Of a DNA stretch of 59,694 nt, positions 1,826 to 27,828 are shown in pieces (position 1 is the first letter of the stretch; each line of letters starts with the position of its first letter). The position numbers and the translations under genes were made by a program. The notes beneath the pieces are model-generated. The model ran no database searches. It was not told the DNA's origin and was given only the letters and a program-made list of their open reading frames with translations. The stretch lies in the NCBI GenBank assembly GCA_902784675.1, contig CACZVR010000023.1, positions 1-59,694 on the forward strand, given 5' to 3'. The DNA is from an uncultured Bacteroidales bacterium (GTDB taxonomy: Bacteria > Bacteroidota > Bacteroidia > Bacteroidales > Muribaculaceae).

Positions 1826-1857
1826 CGAAGATAAGATGAAAAGTTTGATTACGCAAA
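1826..1857 (-). promoter_or_regulatory. Candidate lacI promoter overlapping the operator
   Basis: On the minus strand TATCTTCG (1833 down to 1826) resembles the Bacteroidetes -7 box, and TTTG (1857 down to 1854) sits 20 bases upstream as a -33 box. The -33 box lies inside the operator at 1853-1864, which would allow autorepression. Confidence 0.5.
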
Positions 1858-1864
1858 CGATTGC
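1853..1864. promoter_or_regulatory. LacI-type operator between lacI and susC
   Basis: GCAAACGATTGC fits the near-palindrome GCAAnCGnTTGC with a central CG, the usual shape of LacI-family operators. Its centre is 61.5 bases upstream of the first base of the susC -7 box. The identical core occurs at 10824-10835 and a one-base variant at 27817-27828. A weaker left half-site, GTAAACG, lies at 1806-1812. Confidence 0.75.
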
Positions 1865-1919
1865 ATTTATTTAATTAAAATTTTAACATTATAAAAAAGA
1901 GAGAAAGACAATAATTCTT

Positions 1920-1927
1920 TATTTTTG
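1920..1927 (+). promoter_or_regulatory. susC promoter, -7 box
   Basis: TATTTTTG matches the Bacteroidetes -7 consensus TAnnTTTG. No clear TTTG -33 box is seen at the usual distance, which would suit an activator-dependent promoter. The untranslated leader would be about 120 bases. Confidence 0.55.
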
Positions 1928-2055
1928 CCATGTTTTAATTGCCTTAAAATGGCCATTTGAGACCGTTTCAGTCACCATCATGATCGCTGATGGTGATAGG
2001 TGAAAGTATGAAATTTATTGATTATCAACATACTATTAACTTTAAAAATTTAAAA

Positions 2056-5000
2056 ATGAAGCAGGTAAACATCAGAATTCCGTTTAGGATTCTTACCCTT
2101 GTGATGGGACTTTTCCTGTCACTCGGCGCCTATGCACAGATTACTGTGAACGGCATTGTGAAGGATGCTACCGGCGAACCTGTCATCGGCGCGAGTGTTC
2201 GTGTCGTTGGCACCCAGCAGGGTACAGTGACCGACTTTGACGGTCTCTTCACCCTCGAAGGTGTGCCCCAGGGCGCCAAGCTCCAGATCACGTCTATCGG
2301 CTACGAGGACCACGAGGTCACCGCAGCCAGTGACTTAGTCATCACCCTGGCCGAGAGCACCCAGATGCTTGAAAATCTGGTGGTCATCGGTTATGGTGTA
2401 GTTAAGAAAAACGACTTGACCGGTTCGGTAGCGGCACTCAAGCCCGATGCCAAGAACAAGGGTGTCGTTGTGAGCGCGCAGGACATGCTCGCCGGTAAGG
2501 TTGCCGGTGTGAGCGTGACCAGCAACAGTGGTGCTCCTGGCGATGGTTCAACCATCCGCATCCGTGGTGGTTCGTCACTGAACGCCAGCAACAACCCCCT
2601 CATCGTGATCGATGGTATCGCCATGGATAACAACGGTGTGAGCGGTCTGTCCAACCCCCTGTCACTGGTTAACCCCCAGGACATCGAGAGCTTCAACGTG
2701 CTGAAGGACGCATCGGCAACCGCCATCTACGGTAGCCGTGGTTCTAACGGTGTCATCATCATCACCACCAAGAAAGGTCGTCGTGGTCAGCGTCCCTCCG
2801 TTTCCTATAACGGTAGCGTGACAATGAGCATGAAGAAGAAGACCATCGATGTGATGGACGGTGACGAGTACCGTGATTTCATCAGGAAGTCTTTCGCTGG
2901 CGACTCCCGCGAGGAGACCGCCCTGTCGCTGCTGGGCAATGCCAACACCGACTGGCAGAGCGAGATCTACAAGACGGCATGGAGCCATGACCACAACTTG
3001 ACCGTAGCCGGTTCGGTGGGCCAGATTCTGCCTTACCGCGTTTCGATGGGTTACACCGATCAGGAAGGTATCCTCAAGACTTCGGACTTCAAGCGCTACA
3101 CCGTTGCTCTGAACCTGAATCCCTCTTTCTTTGAGGACCACCTGACGATGAACCTTAACGGTAAGCTGGCTTGGACCAAGTCACGTTGGGCCGACACCGG
3201 TGCTGTGGGTAATGCCGTCCGCATGGACCCGACGCAGCCCATTTACAGCAATGACCCGATGTATAAGAATGTGGATGGCTATTTCGAGTGGTTGCAGGTG
3301 AACAATGCAGACCCCGCTTGGCCCTACACCAAGAACGGTAACGCCCCCTACAACCCCGTGGCAATGCTCGACAACCATGACAACACGGGTTGGGCTCACA
3401 CGTTCATCGGCAGTGCCGACATCGACTACAAGATCCACGGTTTTGAAGATTTGAGACTCCACCTCACCCTGGGTGGTGACTTCACCGGTGGTCACGGTCA
3501 CAACAACAGCACCTGCTATTCTAACACCTCCAACTACTGGGGCAACAACAGCAGGTACACCCAGAGCAAGGAGAATTTGCAGTTGAGTACCTATGCTCAG
3601 TACTACAAGGACTTTAACGATCTGCACCACTTCGACATCATGGCCGGTTATGAGTGGCAGCACAACTGGCGCAAGGAGTATAACGAGTCATGGGGTACCT
3701 ATCCCAATGATTCTCAACTCTTCTACACCGCCACTGACAGTGAGAATGCGCTCAACGTAGTTCCTGGCCAGTGGATTCCCGGAGCTACTTACCACGTTGG
3801 CGATCCCAAGGCCGGTACCATCTACGGTGACGGTGTTTATTACCAGTTCAATGGTCTGGGTTACCGCACCGAGAATTTCCTGGTATCGTTCTTTGGCCGT
3901 ATGAACTACAGCTATGCTAACCGCTATCTGTTGACCTTCACCATGCGTTATGATGGTTCGTCGCGTTTCAAGAAGCACTGGGCATTGTTCCCCTCGGCAG
4001 CCTTCGCTTGGAAGATCAACGAAGAGGACTTCATGAAGGACGGTCCTTTCAGCGACCTGAAGCTGCGCCTCGGTTGGGGTAAGACCGGTCAGCAGGAAGG
4101 CATCGGTGACTACAACTACTTCACCAACTATGTGATGAGTAACGGTAGTGCAGGTTCGTTCTATGACATTATGGGTGACGGTACCAAGGCTAAGCCCAAT
4201 GCCTATAACCCCTTGCTGAAGTGGGAAACCACCACGACGACCAACGTCGGTATTGACTGGGGTGTTATGAACCAGCGCCTGAGCGGTAGCATCGACTGGT
4301 ATTATCGCAAGACCACCGATCTGCTCAACAGCGCCACCCTGCCGGCATTGTCCAACTTCCGTGACGTGTTCATGAAGAACATCGGTTCGTTGCGTAACAC
4401 CGGTATTGAGCTCTCGTTGAACTGGAAGGCCATCTCCACCAACGACGTTTTGTGGACCATCGACTATAACCTGACTTATAACAGCAACAAGATTACCGAG
4501 TTGGTTGGTGATGATCCCAACTATATCGTGCCTCACGGCAACATCTCGGTTGATAACCAGGTACAGGCTCACGTCGTGGGCTATCCTGCTAGCTCGTTCT
4601 ACGTTTACCAGCAGGTCTATGACCAGAATGGCCATCCCATCGAGGGCCAGGTGGTTGACCGCAACGGTGACGGTGTGATCAGCAACTCGGACAAGTACTA
4701 CTACAAGTCGCCGCACGCTCCCGTAACCATGGGTCTGGCATCGCGCCTCGACTGGAAGAATTGGGACTTCGGTTTCAACTTGCGTGCCAGCATCGGCAAC
4801 TACCTGTTCAACAACGTGATGCAGAGCCGACACAACGTCAGCAATGCCGCTATGCTGGAAGAGATTGGTGGTAAATATCTGGTTAACCGTCCCATCGATA
4901 TGGTTAAGTTGGGTTGGCAGACCTATGATGTCAAATCATTGGAGACCGACTATTGGGTACAGAATGCTTCGTTCCTCAAGTGTGACAACATCACCCTGGG

Positions 5001-5190
5001 TTACAGCTTCAATAATCTGCTCAAGCGTGGCAGTTACAATGGCATCGGCGGACGTCTCTACGCTACCGTTTCCAATGTGTTCTGCATTACCAAGTTTAAT
5101 GGTATCGATCCCGAGAACTCCGGTGGCATCTGTGGTGATATCTTCCCGCGTCCCATCTCGTTCATCCTCGGTTTGAGCCTGAACTTCTGA
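2056..5190 (+). CDS. susC: SusC-type TonB-dependent receptor for starch oligosaccharides
   Basis: This 1044-residue outer-membrane transporter pairs with the SusD gene 39 bases downstream. The start at 2056 gives a signal peptide ending GAYA-Q; an upstream in-frame GTG at 1990 would put a poor leader before it. A carboxypeptidase-regulatory-like domain (about 29-105, ITVNGIVKDATGEPVIGASV) is followed by the plug domain, with NLVVIGYG near 110 and the SusC signature SATAIYGSRGSNGVIIITTKKG near 215-235. A beta-barrel fills the rest and ends in LGLSLNF with a terminal Phe. SusC proteins import oligosaccharides through the outer membrane using TonB energy. The substrate, alpha-glucan, is inferred from the susE, susF and amylase genes that follow. 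Confidence 0.95.
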   Translation: MKQVNIRIPFRILTLVMGLFLSLGAYAQITVNGIVKDATGEPVIGASVRVVGTQQGTVTDFDGLFTLEGVPQGAKLQITSIGYEDHEVTAASDLVITLAESTQMLENLVVIGYGVVKKNDLTGSVAALKPDAKNKGVVVSAQDMLAGKVAGVSVTSNSGAPGDGSTIRIRGGSSLNASNNPLIVIDGIAMDNNGVSGLSNPLSLVNPQDIESFNVLKDASATAIYGSRGSNGVIIITTKKGRRGQRPSVSYNGSVTMSMKKKTIDVMDGDEYRDFIRKSFAGDSREETALSLLGNANTDWQSEIYKTAWSHDHNLTVAGSVGQILPYRVSMGYTDQEGILKTSDFKRYTVALNLNPSFFEDHLTMNLNGKLAWTKSRWADTGAVGNAVRMDPTQPIYSNDPMYKNVDGYFEWLQVNNADPAWPYTKNGNAPYNPVAMLDNHDNTGWAHTFIGSADIDYKIHGFEDLRLHLTLGGDFTGGHGHNNSTCYSNTSNYWGNNSRYTQSKENLQLSTYAQYYKDFNDLHHFDIMAGYEWQHNWRKEYNESWGTYPNDSQLFYTATDSENALNVVPGQWIPGATYHVGDPKAGTIYGDGVYYQFNGLGYRTENFLVSFFGRMNYSYANRYLLTFTMRYDGSSRFKKHWALFPSAAFAWKINEEDFMKDGPFSDLKLRLGWGKTGQQEGIGDYNYFTNYVMSNGSAGSFYDIMGDGTKAKPNAYNPLLKWETTTTTNVGIDWGVMNQRLSGSIDWYYRKTTDLLNSATLPALSNFRDVFMKNIGSLRNTGIELSLNWKAISTNDVLWTIDYNLTYNSNKITELVGDDPNYIVPHGNISVDNQVQAHVVGYPASSFYVYQQVYDQNGHPIEGQVVDRNGDGVISNSDKYYYKSPHAPVTMGLASRLDWKNWDFGFNLRASIGNYLFNNVMQSRHNVSNAAMLEEIGGKYLVNRPIDMVKLGWQTYDVKSLETDYWVQNASFLKCDNITLGYSFNNLLKRGSYNGIGGRLYATVSNVFCITKFNGIDPENSGGICGDIFPRPISFILGLSLNF

Positions 5191-5229
5191 TTTAGTTGAC
5201 ACATTAACTTATAAATTAGTCAGAATACA

Positions 5230-6903
5230 ATGAATAAGTTTTTCAAATATATATTGAGTGCTGCAGTGGTGCTGTTGATGGCTGGAGGTCTGTCCTCTTG
5301 CATCAATGACCTGGATGTGGAGCCTATCGATCCAGCGCTGCAGAGCGATGTCACCGCCGAGGAGATTTTCAACAAGTGCTATTCGGTGTTTGCCACCTCG
5401 GGCCACAATGGTGGTGATGATGCTAAAGATATCGATAAAATCAATGACGCTGGTTTCACTCATCTGTATCGCCAGATGTGGAACTCCAATGAGTTGACCA
5501 CCGACGAGGCCCTGTGCAGCTGGAGTGATGGCGGTATCAACGATTTCAATTACAACACCTTTGATGCCGGCCATTCGATGATGGTTGGTTACTACTACAG
5601 GCTGTGTCTGGGTATCACCTTCTGCAACCAGTATCTTGACATGTTTGCTGACCATGACGCCACGATGACTGCCGAGATTCGTTTCCTGCGTGCCTTCCAG
5701 TATTATCTGTTGACCGACGCGTTTGGAAATGTGCCCTTCAGTGATACCTTCACGGGTGATTCTCCCGAACAGTACACGCGCACCCAGGTGTGTGAGTTCA
5801 TCGAGAAGGAGCTCAAGGCCATCACTGGCGAGGACGCTAGCGACAATGGTAATATCCTGAATGATCCTAGTCCCAAGAAGTATGGTCAGGCTGGTTATGG
5901 CCGCGTTGACAAGGCTGCTGCCTGGATGCTGCTGGCTCGCCTGTATCTGAACAGTGAGGTTTACACTGGCACTCCCCGTTGGCACGATGCTGCTGACTAT
6001 GCCAAGAAGGTGATCGACTCGCCTTACAAGCTGAACACCAATGGCTATGCAGGAAATGGTATCGACGGTGTTTATCGTGAGTTCACCGCCTATCAGATGC
6101 TCTTCATGGGTGACAACAGCACGACTGATGCTGCCTATGAGGCCCTGTTCCCTGTTATCCAAGACGGTCTGCGCACCACCTCGTGGGGTGGCTCGGAGTT
6201 CCTGATTGCTTCGACGGTTGACGATGCCGTTCGTCCTTATCGCTATGACGAGACCGAGGTCAACGGTCTTTATGACAACAATGCTTGGGCTGGCAACCGT
6301 GCACGTCCCGAGTTGGTTCGTCTGTTCTTCCCCAACGATGATGCTCCTGAGGCTCATGCCTATGATGTGTATGAGGTGGCCGAGGACGACCGTGCGTTGT
6401 TCGAGACCATGGGTCACACGCTCGACATCACCGATCCTGCTAACTTCAAGTATGGTTTTGCCGTTGCCAAGTTCAACAACTTCAAGTGTGACGGCAGCAA
6501 GGGCAGCAGCATCACCTTCCCCGACACCCATCTGTTCTACATGCGTGTGGCTGAGGCCTATCTGACCTATGCCGAGGCACTCACCCGCGAGAGTGGTGGT
6601 GTCGCTCCTGCCGATGCAGTGGCAGCCATCAATGCAATCCGTGGCCGTGCCCACGCCTTGGAGCGCAACCGCTACACCCTCGACCAGATTCTCGATGAGT
6701 GGGGCCGTGAGTTCTACTTCGAGGGCCGTCGCCGTGTGGATTTGATCCGCTTCAACAAGTTTGGTGGCGACACCGGCTACCAGTGGCAATGGAAGGGTGG
6801 CGTGTATGCAGGCCGTGATTTCCCTGCCTACCGCAATGTATTTGCCATCCCTCACGATGACCTGATTGCTAACTCCAAGTTGACGCAGAATCCCGGTTAT
6901 TGA
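5230..6903 (+). CDS. susD: SusD-type starch-binding outer-membrane lipoprotein
   Basis: This 557-residue RagB/SusD-family protein has a lipoprotein signal ending LSS-C at Cys 24. SusD is the surface lid of the SusC transporter and binds the glycan. Visible family features are the TPR-like helical first half (LRAFQYYLLTDAFGNVPF near residue 155, then AAAWMLLARLYLNSEVYTG near 230) and the C-terminal AINAIRGRAHALERNRYTL...EWGREFYFEGRRRVDLIRF block near 470-515, a hallmark of the family. The length is normal. It lies 39 bases after susC and 42 before the SusE gene, so one transcript is likely. Confidence 0.95.
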   Translation: MNKFFKYILSAAVVLLMAGGLSSCINDLDVEPIDPALQSDVTAEEIFNKCYSVFATSGHNGGDDAKDIDKINDAGFTHLYRQMWNSNELTTDEALCSWSDGGINDFNYNTFDAGHSMMVGYYYRLCLGITFCNQYLDMFADHDATMTAEIRFLRAFQYYLLTDAFGNVPFSDTFTGDSPEQYTRTQVCEFIEKELKAITGEDASDNGNILNDPSPKKYGQAGYGRVDKAAAWMLLARLYLNSEVYTGTPRWHDAADYAKKVIDSPYKLNTNGYAGNGIDGVYREFTAYQMLFMGDNSTTDAAYEALFPVIQDGLRTTSWGGSEFLIASTVDDAVRPYRYDETEVNGLYDNNAWAGNRARPELVRLFFPNDDAPEAHAYDVYEVAEDDRALFETMGHTLDITDPANFKYGFAVAKFNNFKCDGSKGSSITFPDTHLFYMRVAEAYLTYAEALTRESGGVAPADAVAAINAIRGRAHALERNRYTLDQILDEWGREFYFEGRRRVDLIRFNKFGGDTGYQWQWKGGVYAGRDFPAYRNVFAIPHDDLIANSKLTQNPGY

Positions 6904-6945
6904 TGCAATCGTAATGTCTAACATTAAATAAATGACAATAAGAAC

Positions 6946-8142
6946 ATGAAAAAGATATTTTTATCATCACTGATGCTGCTGTGCATGGCTCTCGTGTTCA
7001 CGGCATGCGAGGATGACCGCGATTCCAATCCCACGCTGGTGAAGCCCACCGGGTTCAAGCTCAACAACCCTGTGAACACGCTGGTTGATTTGGCCGTTTC
7101 TGAGGGTATTCCCTTGGCTTGGTCTCAGCCCGACTTCGGTGGCTGGCCTGCGGCTTGTGAATATCAGCTCGAGGTTTCCCCCTACGCTGACAAGTGGGAA
7201 CGGACTACCGACGATGCGGCTGCCGACACTACCGGTGCCACCATCGCTGACTATGCAGTGTTGAAGGCTGTATATGCCGCTTGCAACGGTGTCATGGATG
7301 CCGAGGACCTCAACAAGGCCTTGAACCGCATCTTCATGTGGGAAGAGGGTAATGTGCCCGAGAAGCAGACGGTGTATGTGCGCTGCCGTGCCATCACCGC
7401 TGGTCTTGACGAACCGATTTACTCCAATGTGGTAAGCTTGGACGTGAATCCCTACTATGTTGACCTGAGCAGTGAAGTCAGCACCGAAGTCGAAATCTGG
7501 TACCTCGTTGGTGCTGGTATCGGCTCTGCTGACTGGAACAATGACGCTGCTGCTGTCGGCTCGGGTGGTCTGGTTCCGATGTATCCCGTCTTTGACACCG
7601 ATGGCTCTGTAATCCCTGGTGAGATTCAGTATGTGGGCTACTTCACTGCCGACATGCAGTTCAAGCTGATTAAGAACCCCGGTAGCTGGGATGACCAGTG
7701 GGGTATGGGTGATGGCGCCTATGTGAAGAACGATGGCGGTAGCGGTAACCTGACTGTTCCTGGTGAGGGCTACTACATGATCCACCTCAACACCGCAACC
7801 GACGTGCTCACAATTGAGCCTTATGAGGGTGCTGTTGGCGTTTACACCATGATTGGTATGCCTGGTGATTATCAGGGCTGGGATACCGGCGCTAACCTGA
7901 TGAATGGCATGAGCACTTCCGTCGAGAACCACGACTGGTACTTGAAGGGTGTGACCTATGAGGCAACTGCGCTCAAGTTCGCTGCCGACAATGCTTGGGA
8001 TGTGAACTGGGGTGCCGAGGGCTTCCCCTATGGCCAAGGCGTGCAGAACGGTGCAAACATTCCCATCGCTGCAGGCACCTATGATGTTTACTTCAACGAC
8101 ATCTTGGGTACTTACAACTTTGTTCCGGTATCGGTAGAGTAA
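6946..8142 (+). CDS. susE: SusE-like starch-binding surface lipoprotein
   Basis: This 398-residue lipoprotein has its signal ending FTA-C. CEDDRDSN after the cysteine is acidic, like the surface-export signal of Bacteroidetes lipoproteins. The N-terminal part (about 30-165) is a SusE-type immunoglobulin-like domain (PTGFKLNNPVNTLVDLAVSE). From about 185 come two starch-binding modules, one starting EIWYLVGAGIGSADWNN and the other YTMIGMPGDYQGWDTGA. Both modules recur in the next gene. SusE and SusF bind starch at the cell surface but do not cut it. The position after susC-susD is the canonical one. Confidence 0.88.
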   Translation: MKKIFLSSLMLLCMALVFTACEDDRDSNPTLVKPTGFKLNNPVNTLVDLAVSEGIPLAWSQPDFGGWPAACEYQLEVSPYADKWERTTDDAAADTTGATIADYAVLKAVYAACNGVMDAEDLNKALNRIFMWEEGNVPEKQTVYVRCRAITAGLDEPIYSNVVSLDVNPYYVDLSSEVSTEVEIWYLVGAGIGSADWNNDAAAVGSGGLVPMYPVFDTDGSVIPGEIQYVGYFTADMQFKLIKNPGSWDDQWGMGDGAYVKNDGGSGNLTVPGEGYYMIHLNTATDVLTIEPYEGAVGVYTMIGMPGDYQGWDTGANLMNGMSTSVENHDWYLKGVTYEATALKFAADNAWDVNWGAEGFPYGQGVQNGANIPIAAGTYDVYFNDILGTYNFVPVSVE

Positions 8143-8165
8143 ATTATTAATTGAGTTCTCAGTCA

Positions 8166-8210
8166 TCAGTTTTCAGTTGTCAGCGACCTGCGCAATCAAC
8201 TGAAAACTGA
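8166..8210. repeat. Perfect 14-base inverted repeat between susE and susF
   Basis: Arm 8166-8179 (TCAGTTTTCAGTTG) and arm 8197-8210 are exact reverse complements separated by 17 bases. A further partial copy follows at about 8214-8227. The transcript would form a stable hairpin between the two coding regions, with no T-run directly after it. It may be an mRNA stabiliser, a partial terminator or a dispersed repeat. Confidence 0.8.
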
Positions 8211-8243
8211 GGGCTGAAAACTGAAAACAATAAGAAATAGAAA

Positions 8244-9323
8244 ATGAAGAAGTTTTTATATATCGCAGCAACCGCCTTGTTGCTGGCAAGCTGTACCGAG
8301 GACTTCAAGGACTGGGCCGAGCCCCAGAGCAATCCTCAGGGTGAAGTGATCTCCTTCGGCAACGGTTCGGTGGCTCCTGCTGGAGTGATTGACTTTGCTC
8401 AGGTGACCGAGGAGCGTGTCAAGGTGTGTGACATCACCGCTCCCTCCACCAGTGACACTACCTATTTCGCTGAATCCACGATTTACCTCAATGGTCAGCC
8501 TTTCGTGCTTGGTACTGACGGTACCGTTGATGCCAAGGAACTCGAGGCTTATGTGATTTCGCTCTATGGCAAGGCTCCCGAGCCTCGCGTTCTCACCGCT
8601 CAGGTTGAGTGGCTGATGACCAATGGCACGACGTCCACAAGAATCAAGAGCGACCCGTTTGAGATTACCGTGATTCCCGCTCCTGTCGCAGTTCCCGACT
8701 TGTGGTATCTGGTTGGCTCATGCATCGGTGACGGCTCATGGGGCAATGAACCCGCTAAAGTGGGCACCGCATTGATTCCCATGTACAGCCAGGCCGATGA
8801 TGACTTCATGGTATTGACCTATGTTGGTTACTTCCCCGCTGGCCAGGGCTTCAAGCTCATCCACCAGCCCGGCAATTGGGAAGAGCAATGGGGCATGAAG
8901 GACGGCGAATTCGTGAAGAACGACGGTGGCAGCAGCAACATCGAGGTGGCAGCCGACGGTTACTATCAGTTGACCTACGACATGAACACCGAGACGCTGA
9001 CCATGACGCCCTATGATGGCCTTGTGAATGTATACAACATCATGGGTATGCCTGGCGGCTATCAGGATTGGGATCCCGGAGCAACGCTCATGACTCCCAT
9101 GAACACTGTGGTCGAGAACCATGACTGGGTGAAGGATCTGACCTTCGAGGAGAATTCCGAGCTCAAGTTTGCTGCCAACGGTGGTTGGGATGTGAACTGG
9201 GGCAGCAACACCTTCCCTGTGGGTTCTGGTGTTGCTAACGGTGCGAACATCCCCGTTGATGCCGGCTCCTACAAGATTGTCTTCAACGACATCCTGGGCA
9301 AGTACTATTTCATCGCTCAATGA
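8244..9323 (+). CDS. SusF/SusE-like starch-binding surface lipoprotein
   Basis: This 359-residue lipoprotein has its signal ending LAS-C, followed by TEDFKD. After a short N-terminal domain, the region from about residue 152 has the same two modules as the preceding protein: DLWYLVGSCIGDGSWGN and YNIMGMPGGYQDWDPGATLM. It ends in an almost identical ANIPVDAGSYKIVFNDILG block. It is clearly a paralogue of the upstream gene through its C-terminal 200 residues, so starch binding is likely. It is shorter than B. thetaiotaomicron SusF (485 residues) and lacks a third module. It is the last gene before the terminator at 9345. Confidence 0.85.
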   Translation: MKKFLYIAATALLLASCTEDFKDWAEPQSNPQGEVISFGNGSVAPAGVIDFAQVTEERVKVCDITAPSTSDTTYFAESTIYLNGQPFVLGTDGTVDAKELEAYVISLYGKAPEPRVLTAQVEWLMTNGTTSTRIKSDPFEITVIPAPVAVPDLWYLVGSCIGDGSWGNEPAKVGTALIPMYSQADDDFMVLTYVGYFPAGQGFKLIHQPGNWEEQWGMKDGEFVKNDGGSSNIEVAADGYYQLTYDMNTETLTMTPYDGLVNVYNIMGMPGGYQDWDPGATLMTPMNTVVENHDWVKDLTFEENSELKFAANGGWDVNWGSNTFPVGSGVANGANIPVDAGSYKIVFNDILGKYYFIAQ

Positions 9324-9344
9324 TGAAAACTGATTGAACATATT

Positions 9345-9395
9345 GCGACGGGTTGCCCGCATCATCTGGGCAGGTAACCCGTCGCTCTTGTATTT
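9345..9395 (+). terminator. Terminator after the susCDEF-like operon
   Basis: GCGACGGGTT (9345-9354) pairs exactly with AACCCGTCGC (9376-9385), with an internal GCCC/GGGC pairing. A T-rich stretch (TCTTGTATTTT) follows. The next gene has no clear promoter, so some read-through is possible. Confidence 0.75.
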
Positions 9396-9429
9396 TAGAT
9401 TATTATTCTTTTTAATAACCAAAAACGAT

Positions 9430-10722
9430 ATGAAAAAATTATTTACGCTTTTTGCAATGACGATGATGCTCGCTTTCAGTTCGCAAGCGGCATACTACAT
9501 CGTGGGATCAGATCCCTTCGGTAACTGGAATCCTGGTGCTGGTGTCGAGATGCAGGCTCAGTCCAACGGTACTTACACCTACACGGCGACCATCTCGGGC
9601 ACGATTTGGTTCGTAATGGCCGACAATCTGGATCCTGACTGGGGTATTTTCAATCCCAATTACCGTATTGGTCCGCTGAACGGTGATGAGACCATCACTG
9701 TTGACCAGGGTTGGATTACTACCCAGAAGTCGGGCGGTGACAATGGCGCTTACAAGTTCACCGGTACAGGCTCAGAGTACAAGATCACCTTTAACCCCCA
9801 CATCTGGAAATTCAAGATTGAGGGTGACCAGGGTGACACCTCCATCAAGACCTACACCGTTGCCGGTACTCCTGCAAGCCTCTTTGGCACTGAGTGGGAC
9901 CCCCAAAACACTGATAATGACATGACTGCCTTGGGCAACGGTAAGTATGAGCTCCGCAAGTATGGTTGTGAGCTGGGTGGCGAAGTGGCCTTCAAGGTGG
10001 TTGGTAATCACGATTGGGGTAACGCTTGGCCCAGTGATAACTATGTCTGCCCTGTGCCCGAGAGTGGCATCTATGACGTAGTGTTCACCTTTGACTCAAT
10101 CACCAACGAGCCTGGTATCGAGTTGACCATGTCAGGCAGCATTGATGTCCGCACTGGTGATCTCTTCATCCTGGGTGAGGTGAACGGCAATGGTTGGGAT
10201 CCCAGTGTGGGCTATCCCATGCAGACCGCCGACGAGATCGTCTTCACTGCCGACATCGAGACCTATGGTGAGAACATCGACGAGAATGACGGTCTGGGCT
10301 ACAGCTTCTTCTCGTTTACCACCAAGTTGGGTGAGAACAGCGACGACTGGGGTGGCATCGGTGCCTTCCGCATCGGCGCCCTCGAGGACGGCTTCATGCT
10401 CACCGAGGACCTGTTCGGTGTTCCCGTGGGTATGGGCAACTTCGGTTCGACCGCGAGCTTCAGGGTTCCCGCTGGTTCCTATCAGCTGACCGTTAACCTT
10501 GATGAGAAGACCATGATCATCAACAAGGCCGGTGGCGTACAGCCTGTCGCTGGTGATGTGAATGGTGACGGCGAGGTGAACATCGGTGACCTGAATGCTG
10601 TTATCGCATTGATCCTGTCCAACAACTACACCGCTGCCGGCGATGTCAATAACGACGGCGAGGTGAACATCGGCGACATCAACGCCATCATCAACATCAT
10701 TCTTGCTAAGCCTGCCGAATGA
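9430..10722 (+). CDS. Secreted multi-domain protein, likely alpha-glucan binding, with dockerin-like C-terminus
   Basis: This 430-residue protein starts at 9430, because the signal peptide MKKLFTLFAMTMMLAFSSQA begins there and the frame upstream is not signal-like. There is no lipobox cysteine. Three beta-rich modules are visible: about 22-135 (YYIVGSDPFGNWNPGAG), about 140-235 (YTVAGTPASLFGTEWDP...FKVVGNHDWGNAWP, like the X25 module of amylopullulanases) and about 240-370 (DLFILGEVNGNGWDP). Two calcium-binding dockerin-like repeats end the protein (DVNGDGEVNIGDLNAVI, then DVNNDGEVNIGDINAII). No catalytic motif is seen. Position and the X25-like module suggest starch binding (inference). It follows the susCDEF terminator by about 35 bases. 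Confidence 0.7.
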   Translation: MKKLFTLFAMTMMLAFSSQAAYYIVGSDPFGNWNPGAGVEMQAQSNGTYTYTATISGTIWFVMADNLDPDWGIFNPNYRIGPLNGDETITVDQGWITTQKSGGDNGAYKFTGTGSEYKITFNPHIWKFKIEGDQGDTSIKTYTVAGTPASLFGTEWDPQNTDNDMTALGNGKYELRKYGCELGGEVAFKVVGNHDWGNAWPSDNYVCPVPESGIYDVVFTFDSITNEPGIELTMSGSIDVRTGDLFILGEVNGNGWDPSVGYPMQTADEIVFTADIETYGENIDENDGLGYSFFSFTTKLGENSDDWGGIGAFRIGALEDGFMLTEDLFGVPVGMGNFGSTASFRVPAGSYQLTVNLDEKTMIINKAGGVQPVAGDVNGDGEVNIGDLNAVIALILSNNYTAAGDVNNDGEVNIGDINAIINIILAKPAE

Positions 10723-10750
10723 GTTGATTGATCAATTCTGACCTTTTCAA

Positions 10751-10786
10751 GGGGATGTGTCATCACGATGGCGCATCCCCGTTTTC
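10751..10786 (+). terminator. Terminator after the secreted dockerin-type protein
   Basis: GGGGATGTG (10751-10759) pairs with CGCATCCCC (10772-10780), with one G-T pair, followed by GTTTTC. Confidence 0.75.
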
Positions 10787-10823
10787 TTGATCGATAGAAC
10801 CGAAATCACCGTTGTGGCGGCCT

Positions 10824-10835
10824 GCAAACGATTGC
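10824..10835. promoter_or_regulatory. LacI-type operator upstream of the alpha-amylase
   Basis: GCAAACGATTGC is identical to the operator at 1853-1864, extended by matching flanks to TGCAAACGATTGCAT. Its centre is 63.5 bases upstream of the amylase -7 box. Confidence 0.75.
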
Positions 10836-10871
10836 ATATTGATTTTTTTCAACAAAAAAATGCCCTTAGAC

Positions 10872-10900
10872 TTTGGTTTGCAGATAATTTGCTATATTTG
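10872..10900 (+). promoter_or_regulatory. Alpha-amylase promoter
   Basis: The -7 box TATATTTG is at 10893-10900. Two TTTG copies at 10872-10875 and 10877-10880 are possible -33 boxes; the first gives a 17-base spacer. The leader to the ATG at 10950 is about 45 bases. Confidence 0.6.
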
Positions 10901-10949
10901 TAGTTTAGATATTTACAACAAGAGATAACCACTAAAACCATATTGAGCA

Positions 10950-13007: not shown

Positions 13008-13022
13008 TTCAACCGCTCAATC

Positions 13023-19307: not shown

Positions 19308-20621
<1,314 letters not shown>

Positions 20622-20651: not shown

Positions 20652-20674
20652 CTTAAAAAGCGGATTATTTTATA

Positions 20675-20682: not shown

Positions 20683-20713
20683 CACCGAATTTTAATGTGT
20701 GCGCAATAATACA

Positions 20714-21715: not shown

Positions 21716-21731
21716 AATTAATAAATACAGT

Positions 21732-21769
21732 AAAAACCGCCACTGAGCTTAATGCTCGTGGCGGTTTTT
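21732..21769. terminator. Terminator after ddl
   Basis: AAAAACCGCCAC (21732-21743) pairs with GTGGCGGTTTTT (21758-21769), and an inner GAGC/GCTC pairing closes the loop. A and T tracts on either side make it bidirectional; the pullulanase gene converges from the right. A short repeat, CTTAGCGC-CTTAGCGT, follows at about 21780-21795. Confidence 0.88.
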
Positions 21770-21801
21770 ATTCTTTGCGTCTTAGCGCCTTAGCGTGAGG
21801 A

Positions 21802-22362
21802 CTAATTGTGGATGATTAGTGCAGACTGGGCGGGGATTGTGATTTTGGAACCTTTAACAACACCGATGCCTTGTTGGTCGCACTTGATGTTGCGGCACAC
21901 GACTGTGTAGGTGCCGTCGGGGACTTCGATGGTGCGGGCGCGCTTGTGGGCGTTGAAAGCGACGTAGATGTCGCCCCACTGTTCACCGGGCACTCCGCGG
22001 CCATTGATGTGATAGGCCACAAGACAGTTCTCGGTGGGCAGGAAGTCCAGATTCTTGCGCACCATGTCGGCACTGCCCATGTGGAAGGCGGGATGGGCTT
22101 TGCGCAGGGCAATCAGGTTCTTGTAGTAGTCCATCACTTGCGGGTAACGCTCCAGGTTGTCCCAGTCCAGATGGTTGATGCTGTCGGGGCTCTCATAGCT
22201 GTTGTGCACACCTTTCTTGTTGCGCAGCATCTCCTCGCCGCTGAGCATGAACGGCACGCCTTGTGAGGTCATGACCACGGTTTGTGCCAGCAAGTCGAGA
22301 CGGATGAGTTCATCTTGGGTGATGCCCTTGACGCTGGCCTTGAGGCGGTCCACAAGACACAT
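21802..22362 (-). pseudogene. pulA: Type I pullulanase, 3' part after frameshift
   Basis: This frame encodes the C-terminal part of the pullulanase begun at 23657. The in-frame codons start upstream of the ATG at 22362, with CHDD at 22374-22363. That is GH13 conserved region IV, carrying the transition-state-stabilising Asp. It continues MCLVDRLKASVKGITQ, MTSQGVPFMLSGEEMLRNKKGVHNSYESPD and a small C-terminal beta domain. The match to pullulanases resumes exactly where the upstream frame loses it, so this is one gene broken by a single indel, not a separate gene. Independent translation from 22362 would give a fragment with no complete active site. Confidence 0.85.
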
Positions 22363-23657
22363 GTCGTCGTGACAAGTTCGTAGTTCACGCCGGGATGCTG
22401 GATGGCTCCCACGATGCCGAACTTGATACTCTCTTCGTAACCCTTGACACCACCCAGGAAGGCAGCCTTGCTATTGCTGTCCCATGGGCCGCGCAGGCCA
22501 TCACGCATGCAGTCGCTGAAGGCGGCGATGCCCGGCATCTTGCTGATGTTTGCCTTCATGGCCAGCTCACCCGAGTAGGCGCAGCTGCCGGCACTCCAGC
22601 CCTCGCCATAGATGAAGATGTCATCGGGCACGGCCTTGCGAATGGCGTTCATCGTCTCGATGTCATGCACACCCATCAGGTCGAAGCGGAAACCGTCGAT
22701 ATGATATTCATCCACCCAATATTTCACGCTCTCGATCATGAATTGGCGCATGCCTTCGCGCTCACTGGCCGTCTCGTTGCCGCAACCGCTGCCGTTGCTG
22801 TAAGTGCCATCGGCGTTCTTGCGGTAGAAGTAGTCGGGACGCGTCAGCTGGAAGTTGCTCTCGTCGATGTTCCAGGTGTGGTTATACACCACGTCGAGGA
22901 TGACCTTGATGCCTGCCTTGTGCAGCGCCTGGACCATCTGCTTGAACTCGTTGATGCGCACCTCGGGCTTGTAGGGGTCGGTCGAGTAGCCACCCTCGGG
23001 CACATTATAGTTCACAGGGTCATAGCCCCAGTTGTACTGCGGCTCGTTGAGGCGTGTCTCATCGACCGAGGCATAGTCAAACGACGGCAGGATGTGCACC
23101 GCATTCACGCCCAGTTCCTTCAAGTGGCTGATGGCGCGCGGCTCGGTCAGGGCCAGGAACTTGCCCTTGTAGATGAAGTCGCCGGACTCGTCAATCGAGA
23201 AGTCGCGGTGGTGCATCTCATAGAGGATAAGGTCTTTGGCAGCAATGGCGGGACGCTTGTCGGCAGCCCAGCCCTGAGGATTGGTCTGCGTCATGTCGAC
23301 GATGGCGCCACGTTTTCCGTTGACGCCCACAGCAGTAGCCCAGATACCGGGGCACTCCCCCTTGAACTTGCCGCCGTATTTCACGTCAAACGTGTAGAAC
23401 TGACCTTTCAAATCACCCTTGACAGTGGCTTGCCACAGGGTGCCGCCCGTCTTCTCGCGTTTCATGTTGACCGTTTTGACGGGCTTGCCGCCCTTGCCCT
23501 CCTTGTAGATGCGCAGTTTCACTTGCTGGGCGTCTTGGTTGGTTTCTACCGAAAAAGCGCTCGCGCGCGGGGTGTAATCCACCCCGGTGCGAGCGTTAAG
23601 GAATTGTGGTAAGAGTAATGCCATGATTATCGTTACCAGTGATATGAGCTGTTTCAT
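22269..23657 (-). pseudogene. pulA: Type I pullulanase (GH13_14), 5' part, frameshifted
   Basis: Pullulanase cuts alpha-1,6 branches. The first about 426 residues are normal: signal peptide, N-terminal beta domain, the type I signature YNWGYDP near residue 240, nucleophile Asp in DGFRFDLMGVHD near 340 and acid/base Glu in IYGEGWSAG near 365. After GVNYEL the frame slips and about 36 unrelated residues precede the stop. One missing base at 22375-22379 (TACGAACTTGTCAC where pullulanases would need one more base before TGTCAC) explains it. No slippery heptamer is seen, so a sequencing error or true inactivation is likelier than programmed frameshifting. The start shares one base with the malQ stop (TAATG). 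Confidence 0.88.
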
Positions 23658-26338
23658 TATCGTCCGCTTTGCGAGATGAGTTCTTTCACATGGGCGTTAA
23701 ACTCACTGGCTTTCATCAACTGCTCGATGGTCATGTGCATGCGGTAGCGCCAGTAGTGACGCGGATTGGCCGGGATGTTGATGCGCTCGGCATCGGCATC
23801 GGCCAGACGCAGTTTCTCGTCGATAGCGAGCCAGTCTTGCAACGAGAGCAAGGTCAGCATCGACGGGCAGTTGAGGTGGTTGCGCACGATCTCATCGGCA
23901 AGCCAACCGGGCAGCGGATGCGGTGCAGCGTCGGGATGCCACAGTGAGGAGCCGTAATACTCCTGGGTGCGGTCCCAATCCTCATCCCACCACTGTCGCA
24001 TTGTGGGCATGTCATGGGTCGAAATGGTGGCCACGCTGCGATAGGGGTTTGTGCTCAGGTTGCCGAACTTGATGTGGTTGTCTTTAGGCATCGATTGGAT
24101 CTCAAGGCTCAAGATGCGCAACTCGTTCATCACCCATGCCACGCAGTCGGGCACCATGCCCAGGTCCTCGGCACACACGAGCATGCGTGTCGCCTGCACC
24201 AGTTTGGGCAGCTTCTTCATTGCCTCGTGATACCAGAAGTCGTTGTTGCGGTGATAGTAGTACTCGTTGTAGAGCTTGTTGAACGCGGCCTTGTCGTTAT
24301 CGTAGAGTGCCTCGTAGATAAAGTCGAACTGCACCGAGATGCGCGGATGGTAGAGCGCCGGATTTTTGCGGTCGCGCACGAACAGCACGTCGCTGATGAG
24401 GGCATACAGGCCGTCGCGAATCCAGATGTCATCCTCGCTCTCCTTGCCGCGGAAGGCGGCTTCCACCTTGCGCTGGGTGTCATACTCGGGCTTCATGCGA
24501 TAGATGTCGTCATGCACACGCTCGACATATTTCTCGCGCACCGTGTCGGCCCATTTGCCAAAGATGCGTTCCAGCACCCAATCGGCGATGAACGGTTGGG
24601 TCATCAGTTCCTCTTGGAAGTTCAGGCCGTAGCTGCGGATCTCTTGGGCGCTCATGCCTTGCGAGGGCGAGAACTGACCCAGCAGGCCATGCACAGCGTT
24701 GATGGGAATTTCCCAGATGCGGAAAAAGCCAAGCACATGGTCGATGCGGTAGGCGTCGAAGTACTGCGACATTTTGCGGAAGCGTTTTACCCACCACTTG
24801 CAGCCGTCGGCAAGCATCACATCCCAGTTATAGGTTGGGAAGCCCCAGTTCTGGCCGTTGGTCGAGAATGCATCGGGCGGGGCACCGGCTTGTCCGTTGA
24901 GGTTGAAGTATTTGGGCTCTACCCATGCCTCCACACTGTCGCGGCTGATGCCGATGGGAATATCGCCCTTGAGTACGACGTGCTTGCTTTGTGCGTACTG
25001 GTGAGCGGCGTGCATCTGCTTGTCCAGATAATACTGGACGTAATAGGCCAGGCTCACCTCCTTGTAACTGTTGGTGCGCGGGTTGGCCATAGCCTTACGC
25101 TCCTCGTCGCTGAATGAGTGGTGCGAGGGCCATTGACTGAAGGTTGCCGTGCCATACAGGTCGCGGTAGTGGCAGAAGGCGGCATAGGGCACCAGCCAAT
25201 CCTCGTTGGCCGTGAAGAATGCCTTGAATTCGTCGCTCTTGAGCACTTTCTCTCCTTCTTGCTTGAACAAGAGCTTCATGTATTCACGCTTGGCGTTATT
25301 CACACGCTCATAGTCGATTTGCGGCAGTGCGTTCAGTTCCTTGCGCAGCTTCTCGAACTCGGCGGCGCGTTTCTTGTCGGTCAATTTGGGCAACTGGCGC
25401 AGGTCCAAGTACTGCGGGTGCAAGGCATAGATGCTGATGCTGTTGTAGGGATAGCTGTCGCTCCAGGTGTGGGTGATGGTGGTGTCGTTGATGGGTAACA
25501 CCTGCAGGGCACGCTGGCCTGTGCTGGCCACCCAGTCCACCATGAGCTTGAGGTCACCGAAGTCGCCCACGCCGAAACTGCCCTCGCTGCGCAGCGAGAA
25601 GATGGGGACCACAGTACCCGCCAACTTGGCGGGATACAAGGGGAAATAGGCCTGCTGCAACTCATAGATGATGTGCTCACCGTCTTTCAGAACAGGCATC
25701 AGCACCGTGCGGTTGTCACCGGTTTCCCAAATCACGGCCTTTCCCTTTCCGCCCATGATGACGAACTTGAACTCAATCATCGCCTTCTTGAATGCAGCGC
25801 CGTCGAGCGAGATGACCCACTCGTTGTGGTTGTGCTCGGTCATGTTGAGCGCTTTAGCCTCATCCCAGTCGCCCAGGGCCGGCTCGTTGCCCACTATACC
25901 CAGGACTTCGCCTGTGCGCAACTGTGGAGCGCGCACCTTGAGTTGGATGCAGGTGGTATATTTGACCTTGGCCATCGTCTGCAGTTTGCGCAGGGCCACA
26001 CAGTCGGTGAATGCCGAACTGTAGAGGTAGCTGTCGTCGGGCAGGTCGTTCCAGTGGTCAAAGGTGATGTAGCGGTTTGCTTTGGCAGTGTTCAGGTCCA
26101 GGCGGTGGGGAATGACAATCCACTCGTGGCGCACTTCTTTGCCGTCGCGCTCAACGCTGTAGTAATAGTCGATTTGACCGGCCTTGGCCGACACGTCCAG
26201 GTCACATTTCCATGTCTTGTCGGTGGCGGGTTTCATGGCATGGGACGCCACTTTCTCGCCACTGGCGCTGTTCACGATATTGAGTACCATGTTCTCACCG
26301 TAAACGGTGCCGTACTCGATGTTGAATCTTATTTTCAT
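23657..26338 (-). CDS. malQ: 4-alpha-glucanotransferase (amylomaltase, GH77) with N-terminal CBM20 modules
   Basis: This 893-residue cytoplasmic enzyme transfers glucan chains between maltooligosaccharides, releasing glucose. The first about 260 residues hold CBM20-like starch-binding modules; the clearest is RTGEVLGIVGNEPALGDWDEA near 140. The GH77 barrel follows (VPIFSLRSEGSFGVGDFGDLKLMVDW near 265). Catalytic residues are visible: nucleophile Asp in DAYRIDHVLGFFR, acid/base Glu in LVCAEDLGMVPDC and the stabilising Asp in ISTHDMPTMRQWW. The long plant-DPE2-like form is usual in Bacteroidetes. It lies between the transporter and pulA, with 30 bases to the first and a one-base overlap with the second. 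Confidence 0.95.
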   Translation of the reverse strand: MKIRFNIEYGTVYGENMVLNIVNSASGEKVASHAMKPATDKTWKCDLDVSAKAGQIDYYYSVERDGKEVRHEWIVIPHRLDLNTAKANRYITFDHWNDLPDDSYLYSSAFTDCVALRKLQTMAKVKYTTCIQLKVRAPQLRTGEVLGIVGNEPALGDWDEAKALNMTEHNHNEWVISLDGAAFKKAMIEFKFVIMGGKGKAVIWETGDNRTVLMPVLKDGEHIIYELQQAYFPLYPAKLAGTVVPIFSLRSEGSFGVGDFGDLKLMVDWVASTGQRALQVLPINDTTITHTWSDSYPYNSISIYALHPQYLDLRQLPKLTDKKRAAEFEKLRKELNALPQIDYERVNNAKREYMKLLFKQEGEKVLKSDEFKAFFTANEDWLVPYAAFCHYRDLYGTATFSQWPSHHSFSDEERKAMANPRTNSYKEVSLAYYVQYYLDKQMHAAHQYAQSKHVVLKGDIPIGISRDSVEAWVEPKYFNLNGQAGAPPDAFSTNGQNWGFPTYNWDVMLADGCKWWVKRFRKMSQYFDAYRIDHVLGFFRIWEIPINAVHGLLGQFSPSQGMSAQEIRSYGLNFQEELMTQPFIADWVLERIFGKWADTVREKYVERVHDDIYRMKPEYDTQRKVEAAFRGKESEDDIWIRDGLYALISDVLFVRDRKNPALYHPRISVQFDFIYEALYDNDKAAFNKLYNEYYYHRNNDFWYHEAMKKLPKLVQATRMLVCAEDLGMVPDCVAWVMNELRILSLEIQSMPKDNHIKFGNLSTNPYRSVATISTHDMPTMRQWWDEDWDRTQEYYGSSLWHPDAAPHPLPGWLADEIVRNHLNCPSMLTLLSLQDWLAIDEKLRLADADAERINIPANPRHYWRYRMHMTIEQLMKASEFNAHVKELISQSGR

Positions 26339-26365
26339 AGTCCTTAGTTTTTAGTCCTCAGTTGA
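26339..26365. repeat. TTAGTCC heptad repeat
   Basis: TAGTCC-TTAGTTT-TTAGTCC with a degenerate continuation fills the gap between malQ and the transporter gene. Copies of the same motif lie at 28956, 45194 and 47625. Confidence 0.6.
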
Positions 26366-26368
26366 TAG

Positions 26369-27694
26369 TTATGCGTTGTGTTTCTTGTCCTCGATGATGA
26401 ATACGCACACGGCGCCCACCACGAGCAGGATGCCTGCGAGCAGGAGCATGTTGCCCTGAATGCTGCCCATTGCCGCCAGGATGACGCCACCCAGAGCGGC
26501 AGCGACAATCTGCGGGATGCAGATGGTGCAGTTGAACAATCCCAGTGCGGTGCCCATGCGGCTGCTGCCCTCAAAGGCGTTGGTCACCAGCGTGAACGGC
26601 ATGGCCAGCATGGCTGCCCAGGCGAAGCCGATGAGGAAGTAGGGCACAAACAGCATGTACTGGTTGTGGATGAAGGGTACCATGGCAAAGCCGATGCCGC
26701 CGATGACAAGACTCAGGGCATAGGCCACCTTGATGTTCTTGAAGCGCGGCAGTACAACAGCCCACAGCACACTGCCGATGGCTTGCACGGCAAACAGGAT
26801 GCCCACCCAGTTACCGGCTTTCTGATAGCCCTCGCTGGCGGCATCGGTGGTGTTCCAAACGGTGTCGGCGATGGTGCCGTTGGTGTAGGTCCACATGTAC
26901 ATGAATGCAGCCCAGCAGAAGAACTGAACCAGACCTACCTCAAAGAATACCTTGTAAGCGTGCTTCTTTTGTGCAGGGCTCATCTCGGAAGAGGCTTCTC
27001 CCTTGCCCTCGGAGTTGGCCGCAGCGTTGAACTCGGCCATTTGCTGCGGTGTGTACTCCTTGACATTGCTGATGGTGTAGATCACGCACAGGATGAGGAT
27101 GGCAGCGCCCACATAGAACGACCACTTCACACTGTCGGGCACAACGCCCTCGGGGGCGATGTTGGCAATGCCGATGGCGGTGAACAGGAAGGGGAAGATG
27201 TAGCCCACCAGTGAACCTGCGTTGCACAGGAAGGACTGGATCGAGTAGGCTTTGGCCTTCTGTTTCTCGTTTACCATGTCGCCAACCATCATTTTGAAGG
27301 GCTGCATGGCCATATTGATGCTCGTGTCAAGGAACATCAGGGCAATCAGTCCAAAGGTCATTGCGCCTGCAACGGTCAGTCCGAACGAGCCGGCGTTGGG
27401 CAACAAGCACATCACGATAATGGCGGCCAGCGCACCGATGAGCAGATAGGGGATGCGGCGGCCCCAGCGTCCAAGCCAGGTCTTGTCGCTGAAGTAGCCT
27501 ACCAATGGCTGCACAACCATACCCATGAGCGGCGGCAGAATCCAGAAGTAACTCAAATCATGCGGGTCGGCACCCAATGTCGCGAAGATGCGGCTGATGT
27601 TGGCGCTTTGCAGTGCATAAGCGATCTGCACGCCAAAGAATCCAAAGCTGATATTCCACAGCTGGTTGAATTTCAAATCCGGTTTTGTTTTCAT
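26369..27694 (-). CDS. Maltose-type MFS sugar transporter (SLC45/GPH-like)
   Basis: This 441-residue inner-membrane protein has about 12 hydrophobic segments. Its N-terminus, NQLWNISFGFFGVQIAYALQ, and the loop SDKTWLGRWGRRIPYLLIG (MFS signature after helix 2) are typical of the bacterial maltose/SLC45-like group found in Bacteroidetes alpha-glucan loci. It would import maltose or maltooligosaccharide with protons for the cytoplasmic MalQ. It is the first gene of an operon with malQ and pulA, behind a LacI-type operator (27817-27828) and a clear -7 box. No B. thetaiotaomicron Sus protein has this role. Substrate choice is inferred. Confidence 0.9.
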   Translation of the reverse strand: MKTKPDLKFNQLWNISFGFFGVQIAYALQSANISRIFATLGADPHDLSYFWILPPLMGMVVQPLVGYFSDKTWLGRWGRRIPYLLIGALAAIIVMCLLPNAGSFGLTVAGAMTFGLIALMFLDTSINMAMQPFKMMVGDMVNEKQKAKAYSIQSFLCNAGSLVGYIFPFLFTAIGIANIAPEGVVPDSVKWSFYVGAAILILCVIYTISNVKEYTPQQMAEFNAAANSEGKGEASSEMSPAQKKHAYKVFFEVGLVQFFCWAAFMYMWTYTNGTIADTVWNTTDAASEGYQKAGNWVGILFAVQAIGSVLWAVVLPRFKNIKVAYALSLVIGGIGFAMVPFIHNQYMLFVPYFLIGFAWAAMLAMPFTLVTNAFEGSSRMGTALGLFNCTICIPQIVAAALGGVILAAMGSIQGNMLLLAGILLVVGAVCVFIIEDKKHNA

Positions 27695-27752
27695 AATAGA
27701 TATATTTTTAGGTTATTGTGATGATTTTTCGTTATTAGGGCTTTAGTACCTA

Positions 27753-27760
27753 CAAATATA
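27753..27760 (-). promoter_or_regulatory. Transporter-malQ-pulA promoter, -7 box
   Basis: The minus strand reads TATATTTG, identical to the amylase -7 box. No clear -33 TTTG is seen. The leader is about 60 bases. Confidence 0.6.
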
Positions 27761-27816
27761 ACGATGATTGTTGAATTTTACTTTGATATAATGTGCATTA
27801 AGCCTAAAAAAACAAT

Positions 27817-27828
27817 GCAACCGATTGC
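27817..27828. promoter_or_regulatory. LacI-type operator upstream of the transporter operon
   Basis: GCAACCGATTGC differs by one base from the operators at 1853 and 10824. Its centre is 62.5 bases upstream of the -7 box at 27760-27753. A half-site, AACGGTTGCA, follows at 27833-27842. It lies between this promoter and the 3' end of an acyltransferase gene, which does not need it. Confidence 0.7.

What the first reader, a model, noticed from the sequence alone, without database searches (positions are those of the whole stretch)
1853..27828. Three LacI-type operators at a fixed distance upstream of three starch promoters
GCAAnCGnTTGC occurs at 1853-1864 (susC), 10824-10835 (amylase) and 27817-27828 (transporter-malQ-pulA). 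The operator centre lies 61.5, 63.5 and 62.5 bases upstream of the first base of each -7 box, on whichever strand is transcribed. Such a fixed upstream position is typical of activator binding, whereas most LacI-family proteins repress by overlapping the promoter. The starch system would then be driven by one LacI-family activator instead of the SusR type known from Bacteroides. The sites and spacing are seen; the activator role and link to the regulator at 730-1761 are inferred.
Basis: partly seen in the sequence, partly recalled or inferred. Interest (0 to 1): 0.75.

Follow-up and report, generated by a model that had tools for sequence, protein, structure and literature searches.

The report
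LacI-type activator sites in starch regulon
In a rumen bacterium and its relatives, one sugar-sensing DNA-binding protein of a family best known for switching genes off appears to switch starch-digestion genes on, by docking at a fixed distance upstream of each gene's start signal.

Summary
The three operators and spacings (61.5, 63.5, 62.5) are exact; a fourth operator, at 15606, is inside a gene. Genome-wide there are 12 sites: seven stand 61.5-64.5 upstream of starch-type genes, one 72.5 upstream of a winged-helix gene, four inside genes. In 61 genus genomes, operator plus box gives 351 matches against 3 reversed controls; 128 of the 150 listed lie at 60.5-63.5. In 80 named loci 151 boxes fall at 60-65 (0.3 expected). 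The spacing recurs across the order. lacI is found in 59 of 61 genus genomes; one without it keeps malQ but has no operator-box pair. In 36 of 80 loci one operator serves lacI and susC alike. Target promoters are poor in the -33 element; no second operator suggests looping. Best reading: a LacI-family class-I-type activator of starch use, perhaps autorepressing in some lineages. LacI regulators in sus loci, and LacI-family activators, are in print; this geometry was not found in nine searches. Activation, binding and inducer are inferred, not measured; absence of SusR was not tested.

The parts
730..1761 (-). LacI/GalR-family regulator (343 aa), divergent from susC
   Evidence: Pfam LacI HTH PF00356 5e-16 and Peripla_BP_3 PF13377 4e-35; no NCBIfam equivalog cut-off reached; match in 59 of 61 genus genomes, own included
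1853..1864 (.). operator GCAAACGATTGC, centre 61.5 upstream of the susC -7 box
1920..1927 (+). susC -7 box TATTTTTG
1990..5190 (+). SusC-type TonB-dependent receptor
   Evidence: Pfam Plug and TonB barrel
5230..6903 (+). open frame in the SusD position (family not scanned)
   Evidence: name by position only
6946..9323 (+). two SusE/SusF-type proteins (6946-8142, 8244-9323)
   Evidence: Pfam SusF_SusE
9334..10722 (+). X25 plus dockerin protein
   Evidence: Pfam
10824..10835 (.). operator GCAAACGATTGC, centre 63.5 upstream of the amylase -7 box
10893..10900 (+). amylase -7 box TATATTTG
10950..13007 (+). alpha-amylase with CBM26 and dockerin
   Evidence: Pfam
27817..27828 (.). operator (GCAATCGGTTGC on the transcribed strand), centre 62.5 upstream of the MFS -7 box
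27753..27760 (-). -7 box TATATTTG of the MFS-malQ-pulA unit
26369..27694 (-). MFS transporter, probably of sugar
   Evidence: Pfam MFS_1; NCBIfam sucrose symporter far below its cut-off
23657..26338 (-). MalQ, 4-alpha-glucanotransferase GH77 with CBM20
   Evidence: Pfam
21802..23657 (-). type I pullulanase, in two overlapping frames (22269-23657 and 21802-22362)
   Evidence: TIGR02104 positions 9-421 and 441-603, each piece below the whole-protein cut-off
15606..15617 (.). fourth exact match, inside the cyclomaltodextrinase gene, no -7 box: probably chance

Best explanation
The LacI-family protein at 730-1761 is the dedicated activator of the alpha-glucan regulon. As a dimer on the 12-bp palindrome it stands about 62 bp upstream of the -7 box, upstream of the -33 element. 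From there it helps polymerase onto promoters that mostly lack a good -33 element (class-I-like activation). Its sugar-binding domain presumably senses maltose or a maltodextrin. Shown: sites, spacing, conservation, gene content, co-occurrence with lacI, weak -33, no second operator. Inferred: binding by this protein, activation, inducer, polymerase contact. In Prevotella-type loci the same operator would also activate lacI (positive feedback). In a few other lineages it overlaps the lacI promoter, which suggests autorepression.
For: Own genome: 7 sites at 61.5-64.5, all before starch-type genes. Genus: 60 of 61 genomes, 351 matches against 3 reversed controls; 128 of the 150 listed at 60.5-63.5. 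Named loci: 114 of 120 distinct sites have a box at 60-65; 151 boxes in that bin against 0.3 expected, at most 4 in any other 5-bp bin from -200 to +200. susC-side box at 60-65 in 78 of 80 loci, lacI-side in 37, both in 36. Order, own genome left out: 41 matches at 59.5-64.5, 6 at 65.5-70.5, 9 at 71.5-76.5, 15 over the twelve spacings 47.5-58.5 (p 3e-12 if spacings were uniform). lacI-like match in 20 of 23 pattern genomes against 46 of 134 others. G043 (86% complete) has no lacI match at E 1e-60 and no pattern; its bare operators (4) are at control level (6), yet malQ is kept. TTG at the -33 place: 8 of 97 operator-promoter clusters against 41 of 186 control clusters, p 0.003; TTTG 5 of 97 against 25 of 186, p 0.04; neighbouring window 6 of 97 against 16 of 186, p 0.64. 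Second operator within 300 bp: 6 of 120 sites against 113 of 2000 random places. Flavobacterium IR1: a lacI insertion behaves like susC and transporter insertions (PMC9131120, passages).
Against: No binding, expression or deletion data. A minor peak at 53.5-55.5 (13 of 150; 10 of the 13 are the second side of a divergent pair) is out of helical phase. In L105, L106, L108, L212 and L213 a lacI-side box lies at 24.5-25.5, a repressing position, so the protein may act both ways. A second position one turn out (73.5-74.5) is seen beside lacI in distant families (6 boxes), but 14 of the 28 boxes of that call lie at other distances, and order-wide it barely stands out (9 against 6; reversed controls 2 each). 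The other order-wide windows also exceed their reversed controls (15 against 2), so some excess is mere promoter neighbourhood. Orthologous promoters are not independent; clustering leaves 97 groups, chosen within 59-66. Control promoters are unverified boxes, and the 0.3 expected is from the mean box density of whole loci, not of AT-rich gaps. The lacI insertion in IR1 could be polar on the transporter downstream, and its orthology was not tested.
Confidence: 0.8

Rival explanations
1. The LacI protein is a classical repressor that acts from upstream, by looping or by blocking another activator, and maltose releases it, as with MalR of Firmicutes.
For: Most LacI-family proteins repress; pneumococcal MalR represses starch genes from operators of nearly the same sequence, CGCAAACGTTTGCG (PMC4451989, passages).
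Against: The operator centre lies about 62 bp upstream of the -7 box and does not overlap it; few boxes lie at overlapping distances (5 at 20-30 of all boxes counted). No excess of second operators for a loop. Near-fixed spacing over non-homologous promoters and weak -33 elements fit activation.
Confidence: 0.1
2. Dual regulator (not exclusive of the best explanation): activator of the starch genes and repressor of its own gene in some lineages.
For: lacI-side boxes at 24.5-25.5 in L105, L106, L108, L212 and L213, where the operator would cover the -33 region.
Against: In 37 of 80 named loci the lacI-side box is at 60-65 instead; in 39 of 80 there is no lacI-side box within 10-120.
Confidence: 0.35
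3. The site is read by another protein (a LacI paralogue, a PurR-like or CcpA-like factor), not by the adjacent lacI product.
For: The palindrome is shared by several LacI subfamilies (E. coli PurR recalled; pneumococcal MalR). In one distant genome the site stands 62.5 from boxes before both crcB and purC.
Against: Operator next to lacI in 80 of 80 loci, co-occurrence in genus and order, genus targets nearly all starch-type.
Confidence: 0.06
4. The spacing is a chance pattern of AT-rich promoters.
For: Operator promoters are AT-rich, and order-wide all spacing windows exceed their reversed controls.
Against: Reversed-pattern controls 3 against 351; a sharp peak at one distance.
Confidence: 0.001

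Closest known systems
MalR of Firmicutes (S. pneumoniae)
   Same: LacI family, near-identical palindrome, controls maltodextrin genes including pulA and amyA2 (PMC4451989, passages)
   Different: MalR is a repressor of the mal regulon; here the site geometry is that of an activator
SusR of Bacteroides thetaiotaomicron
   Same: controls the starch utilisation genes of the same phylum, as an activator (PMC3878776, passages)
   Different: [quoted passage not shown] here a LacI-family protein and one short palindrome
LacI-type regulators in sus loci of B. fragilis and B. uniformis
   Same: predicted LacI regulator and MFS transporter in a sus locus, no SusR (PMC11633381, one passage)
   Different: that passage gives no operator, spacing or mode; it also names GH65, which I did not look for here
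CcpA, AraQ and MalR1 as activators
   Same: LacI-family proteins bound upstream of the promoter, predicted or reported to activate, with helical phasing discussed (PMC6882875, passages)
   Different: they are dual regulators with broad regulons, and the bifidobacterial sites are said not to be at one particular distance; here nearly one distance serves a pathway regulon
Flavobacterium IR1 lacI23
   Same: LacI gene between susC and a maltose transporter gene; insertion gives the same phenotype as susC and transporter insertions (PMC9131120, passages)
   Different: phenotype scored as colony colour on fucoidan; polarity not excluded; operator not in the passages seen; orthology not tested

Membership tests
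LacI/GalR family | N-terminal LacI HTH plus periplasmic-binding-protein-like domain | tested here: met
   PF00356 and PF13377 above cut-off; CcpA, PurR and LacI structures matched by sequence
LacI/GalR family | short palindromic operator with central CG | tested here: met
   GCAAnCGnTTGC within 400 bp upstream of lacI in 80 of 80 loci; binding itself not tested
a named LacI subfamily (CcpA, CytR, RbsR, MalI, Cra and others) | score above the curated NCBIfam cut-off | tested here: not met
   best CytR 197 bits against cut-off 436
MalR (Firmicutes) | repression of maltodextrin genes | not testable with these tools
   site geometry argues against it
SusR | membrane protein with periplasmic sensor, direct-repeat sites | tested here: not met
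   LacI-type domains cover residues 8-340 of 343; single palindrome
class I activator | site upstream of the -33/-35 element at a fixed distance | tested here: met
class I activator | activity recurs at full helical turns | tested here: inconclusive
   6 boxes at 73.5-74.5 beside lacI and a 9-bp shift for the winged-helix gene, but order-wide only 9 against 6, and an out-of-phase 53.5-55.5 group
class I activator | weak -33/-35 element at target promoters | tested here: met
   8 of 97 against 41 of 186 clusters, p 0.003
class I activator | contact with the polymerase alpha C-terminal domain and loss of expression without the protein | not testable with these tools
   needs bench work

The most novel reading that the evidence does not exclude
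Across Bacteroidales, and perhaps wider in Bacteroidota, starch use is commonly run by a dedicated LacI-family class-I-type activator that stands in for SusR. In Prevotella-type loci one symmetric operator drives lacI and susC in opposite directions at near-equal distance, giving positive feedback and so possibly an all-or-none starch switch.
Probability: 0.5. Interest if true: 0.72.

Novelty: new variant of a known kind. Interest (0 to 1): 0.6.

Why it matters
Starch is a main food of rumen and gut Bacteroidales, yet outside SusR its control is poorly known. A regulon with an exact operator and a nearly fixed spacing gives a direct way to predict starch genes in uncultured genomes. It gives a clean test of how a LacI-family protein can work as an activator, and a simple inducible-promoter design rule for Prevotella and relatives.

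Tried and rejected
Looping repression: second operators (up to 1 mismatch) within 300 bp occur at 6 of 120 sites against 113 of 2000 random places, so no enrichment. Repressor positions: boxes counted from -200 to +200; apart from 24.5-27.5 on the lacI side in a few lineages nothing stands out. A second helical position (about 73.5) beside lacI in distant families is weak order-wide (9 against 6) and kept only as a hint. Phylum scan: 8 of 392 genomes, own included; 5 of the 7 others have a single match. Order scan: the 29 loci kept stand for 28 distinct sites (of 41 matches); 18 of 28 have a susC or alpha-glucan gene downstream; the other 10 do not (SprB repeat, subtilase, CotH, CinA, crcB/purC, an MFS transporter, an ABC-ATPase that looks like UvrA by eye, two frames without a Pfam match, one without an ORF) and are partly chance, the reversed control gave 3. 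SusR absence could not be tested for lack of a SusR query. The listing was cut by the tool at 150 of 351 matches (28 genomes), so the histogram rests on those. Note 2 says about 360 against 4; recounted it is 351 against 3. In one search the winged-helix query was translated one base out of frame, so that row found nothing; one search used the right frame.
Full report
WHAT IS THERE. The window is contig C23 of a 2.70-Mb, 131-contig genome. Its nearest named relatives by the regulator are rumen MAGs labelled Muribaculaceae, Prevotellaceae or Bacteroidales; Candidatus Sodaliphilus fimicaballi is 72% identical. The genus name Sodaliphilus is therefore an inference. The operator GCAAnCGnTTGC occurs 4 times in the window, where shuffles give 0.10. 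The fourth, at 15606, is inside a cyclomaltodextrinase gene and has no box.

THE REST OF THE GENOME. 12 sites in all, against 1 for the pattern read backwards. Eight have a box on the correct side: seven at 61.5-64.5 and one at 72.5. All seven precede starch-type genes: SusC, amylase, MFS-malQ-pulA, and on other contigs two GH13 amylases with CBM26 and dockerin, a 1913-aa protein with X25 and CBM26 modules and an 831-aa protein with X25 modules; the last two have no catalytic Pfam domain. The eighth precedes a 67-aa winged-helix protein (PF10771). A like protein (Pfam in one, by eye in the others) has the same arrangement in three genus genomes, at 63.5 in two and 72.5 in one, so the same gene shows two spacings 9 bp apart. 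The remaining four sites are inside open frames.

THE GENUS. In 61 genomes, operator plus box at 46.5-76.5 gives 351 matches in 60 genomes, against 3 for the reversed control. Of the 150 listed, 128 lie at 60.5-63.5, 13 at 53.5-55.5 and 9 elsewhere. Of 30 distinct operator-promoters read in 45 genus loci, 29 lead to a protein matching an own regulon protein (MFS 8, SusC 7, the rest GH13 or X25 types; a few weakly, 23-36% identity) and the thirtieth is the winged-helix gene. The regulator is found in 59 of 61 genomes and in 30 of 30 of the best-quality ones; 7 of the 59 show one stop in the aligned stretch with a full-length open frame, probably the terminal stop. G043 (86% complete) has no match at E 1e-60 and no operator-box pair; its four bare operators are at control level (6), yet it keeps malQ. 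G040 (67% complete) has no regulator match but has the sites, which may be incompleteness.

NAMED RELATIVES. A scan with the regulator gave 80 loci (the best 80 of 82), including Xylanibacter brevis, Segatella copri, Hoylesella loescheii and Hallella multisaccharivorax. They hold 120 distinct operators; 114 have a box at 60-65, and 151 boxes fall in that bin where 0.3 are expected from the mean density. All 80 have an operator within 400 bp upstream of lacI; 78 have the susC-side box at 60-65, 37 the lacI-side box, 36 both. The 37 carry Prevotella-group labels in nearly every case. The loci closest to the window's own have no lacI-side box.

WIDER. In 158 order-level genomes (own left out of counts) there are 41 matches at 59.5-64.5 (reversed control 3), 6 at 65.5-70.5 (2), 9 at 71.5-76.5 (2) and 15 over the twelve spacings 47.5-58.5 (2) (p 3e-12 for the peak if spacings were uniform). 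A regulator match (E up to 1e-50, paralogues not excluded) is in 20 of the 23 pattern genomes and 46 of 134 others (p 3e-6). 18 of 28 distinct non-own sites with loci lead to susC, GH13, GH57, MalQ, phosphorylase or debranching genes. Beside lacI in 29 loci of distant genomes, with operators of up to 1 mismatch, 28 boxes were found: 8 at 60.5-63.5, 6 at 73.5-74.5, none between these, and 14 at other distances. In the phylum 8 of 392 genomes match, own included; one of them (G263) again has a lacI next to a susC.

HOW IT WORKS. A repressor would be expected to overlap the promoter; here the site lies well upstream. Near-fixed spacing over non-homologous promoters is what a protein-polymerase contact needs. 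After clustering, 97 operator promoters have TTG at the -33 place in 8 cases against 41 of 186 control promoters (p 0.003; with TTTG 5 against 25, p 0.04; with a wider window 13 against 47, p 0.02), with no difference in a neighbouring window. There is no excess of second operators for a loop. In Flavobacterium IR1, insertions in susC, in a lacI gene and in a maltose transporter gene give the same loss of response (PMC9131120, passages); an activator predicts that, though polarity is possible. I conclude activation at about 0.8. Binding, inducer and contact are inferred.

RESULTS THAT DO NOT FIT NEATLY. The 53.5-55.5 group is out of phase; 10 of its 13 are the second side of a divergent pair, six of them lacI itself. 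In L105, L106, L108, L212 and L213 the lacI-side box is at 24.5-25.5, where the operator covers the -33 place and would repress. The protein may therefore be an activator that represses its own gene in some lineages. The order-wide windows outside the peak also exceed their reversed controls.

WHAT IS KNOWN. SusR activates the B. thetaiotaomicron sus genes; of the 11 other regulators of Bacteroides sugar use listed there, the four LacI-family ones concern uronate-type sugars (PMC3878776, passages). LacI regulators in sus loci without SusR are mentioned for B. fragilis and B. uniformis (PMC11633381, one passage). Firmicutes MalR represses from a near-identical operator (PMC4451989, passages). 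CcpA and bifidobacterial AraQ/MalR1 are described as activating from upstream sites (PMC6882875, passages); a LacI-family survey gives Cra and PckR as dual (PMC4052901, passages). S. copri DSM18205 has an incomplete starch system whose susC did not respond to beta-glucans or a polysaccharide mixture; the passages do not give it on maltose (PMC11784079, passages). I found no report of this operator spacing or of a LacI activator of sus genes in the listings of searches, nor in the passages read; these cover open-licence PMC papers only.

VERDICT. A real, strongly conserved regulatory architecture; a new variant of a known kind (a LacI-family regulator used as a dedicated upstream activator of a polysaccharide system).

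Noticed in passing
window 21802-23657 (-): The type I pullulanase is split over two overlapping frames that match successive parts of TIGR02104 (9-421 and 441-603): a frameshift, real or from assembly.
   Followed up: partly
L015 4827-5030, L240, L241, L242: A small winged-helix protein (PF10771) is a recurrent member of the regulon, with operator spacing 63.5 in two genomes and 72.5 in two, own included; a natural 9-bp shift.
   Followed up: partly
window 9334-14381 and L013, L016, L017: Dockerin type I domains end or begin several starch enzymes and a GH53 galactanase of this genome (in L016 just below the Pfam cut-off); no cohesin was looked for.
   Followed up: no
L177 1565-1576: In a distant genome one operator stands 62.5 from -7 boxes before both crcB and purC; perhaps a PurR-like factor, or chance.
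   Followed up: no
L105, L106, L108, L212, L213: Operator 24.5-25.5 from the lacI -7 box, a repressing position, suggesting that lacI autoregulation changed sign between lineages.
   Followed up: partly
operator promoters, -54 to -8 of the -7 box: Operator promoters are AT-richer than controls throughout, most between operator and -33 (GC 0.23 against 0.34 at -43 to -36); perhaps an alpha-subunit binding tract.
   Followed up: no
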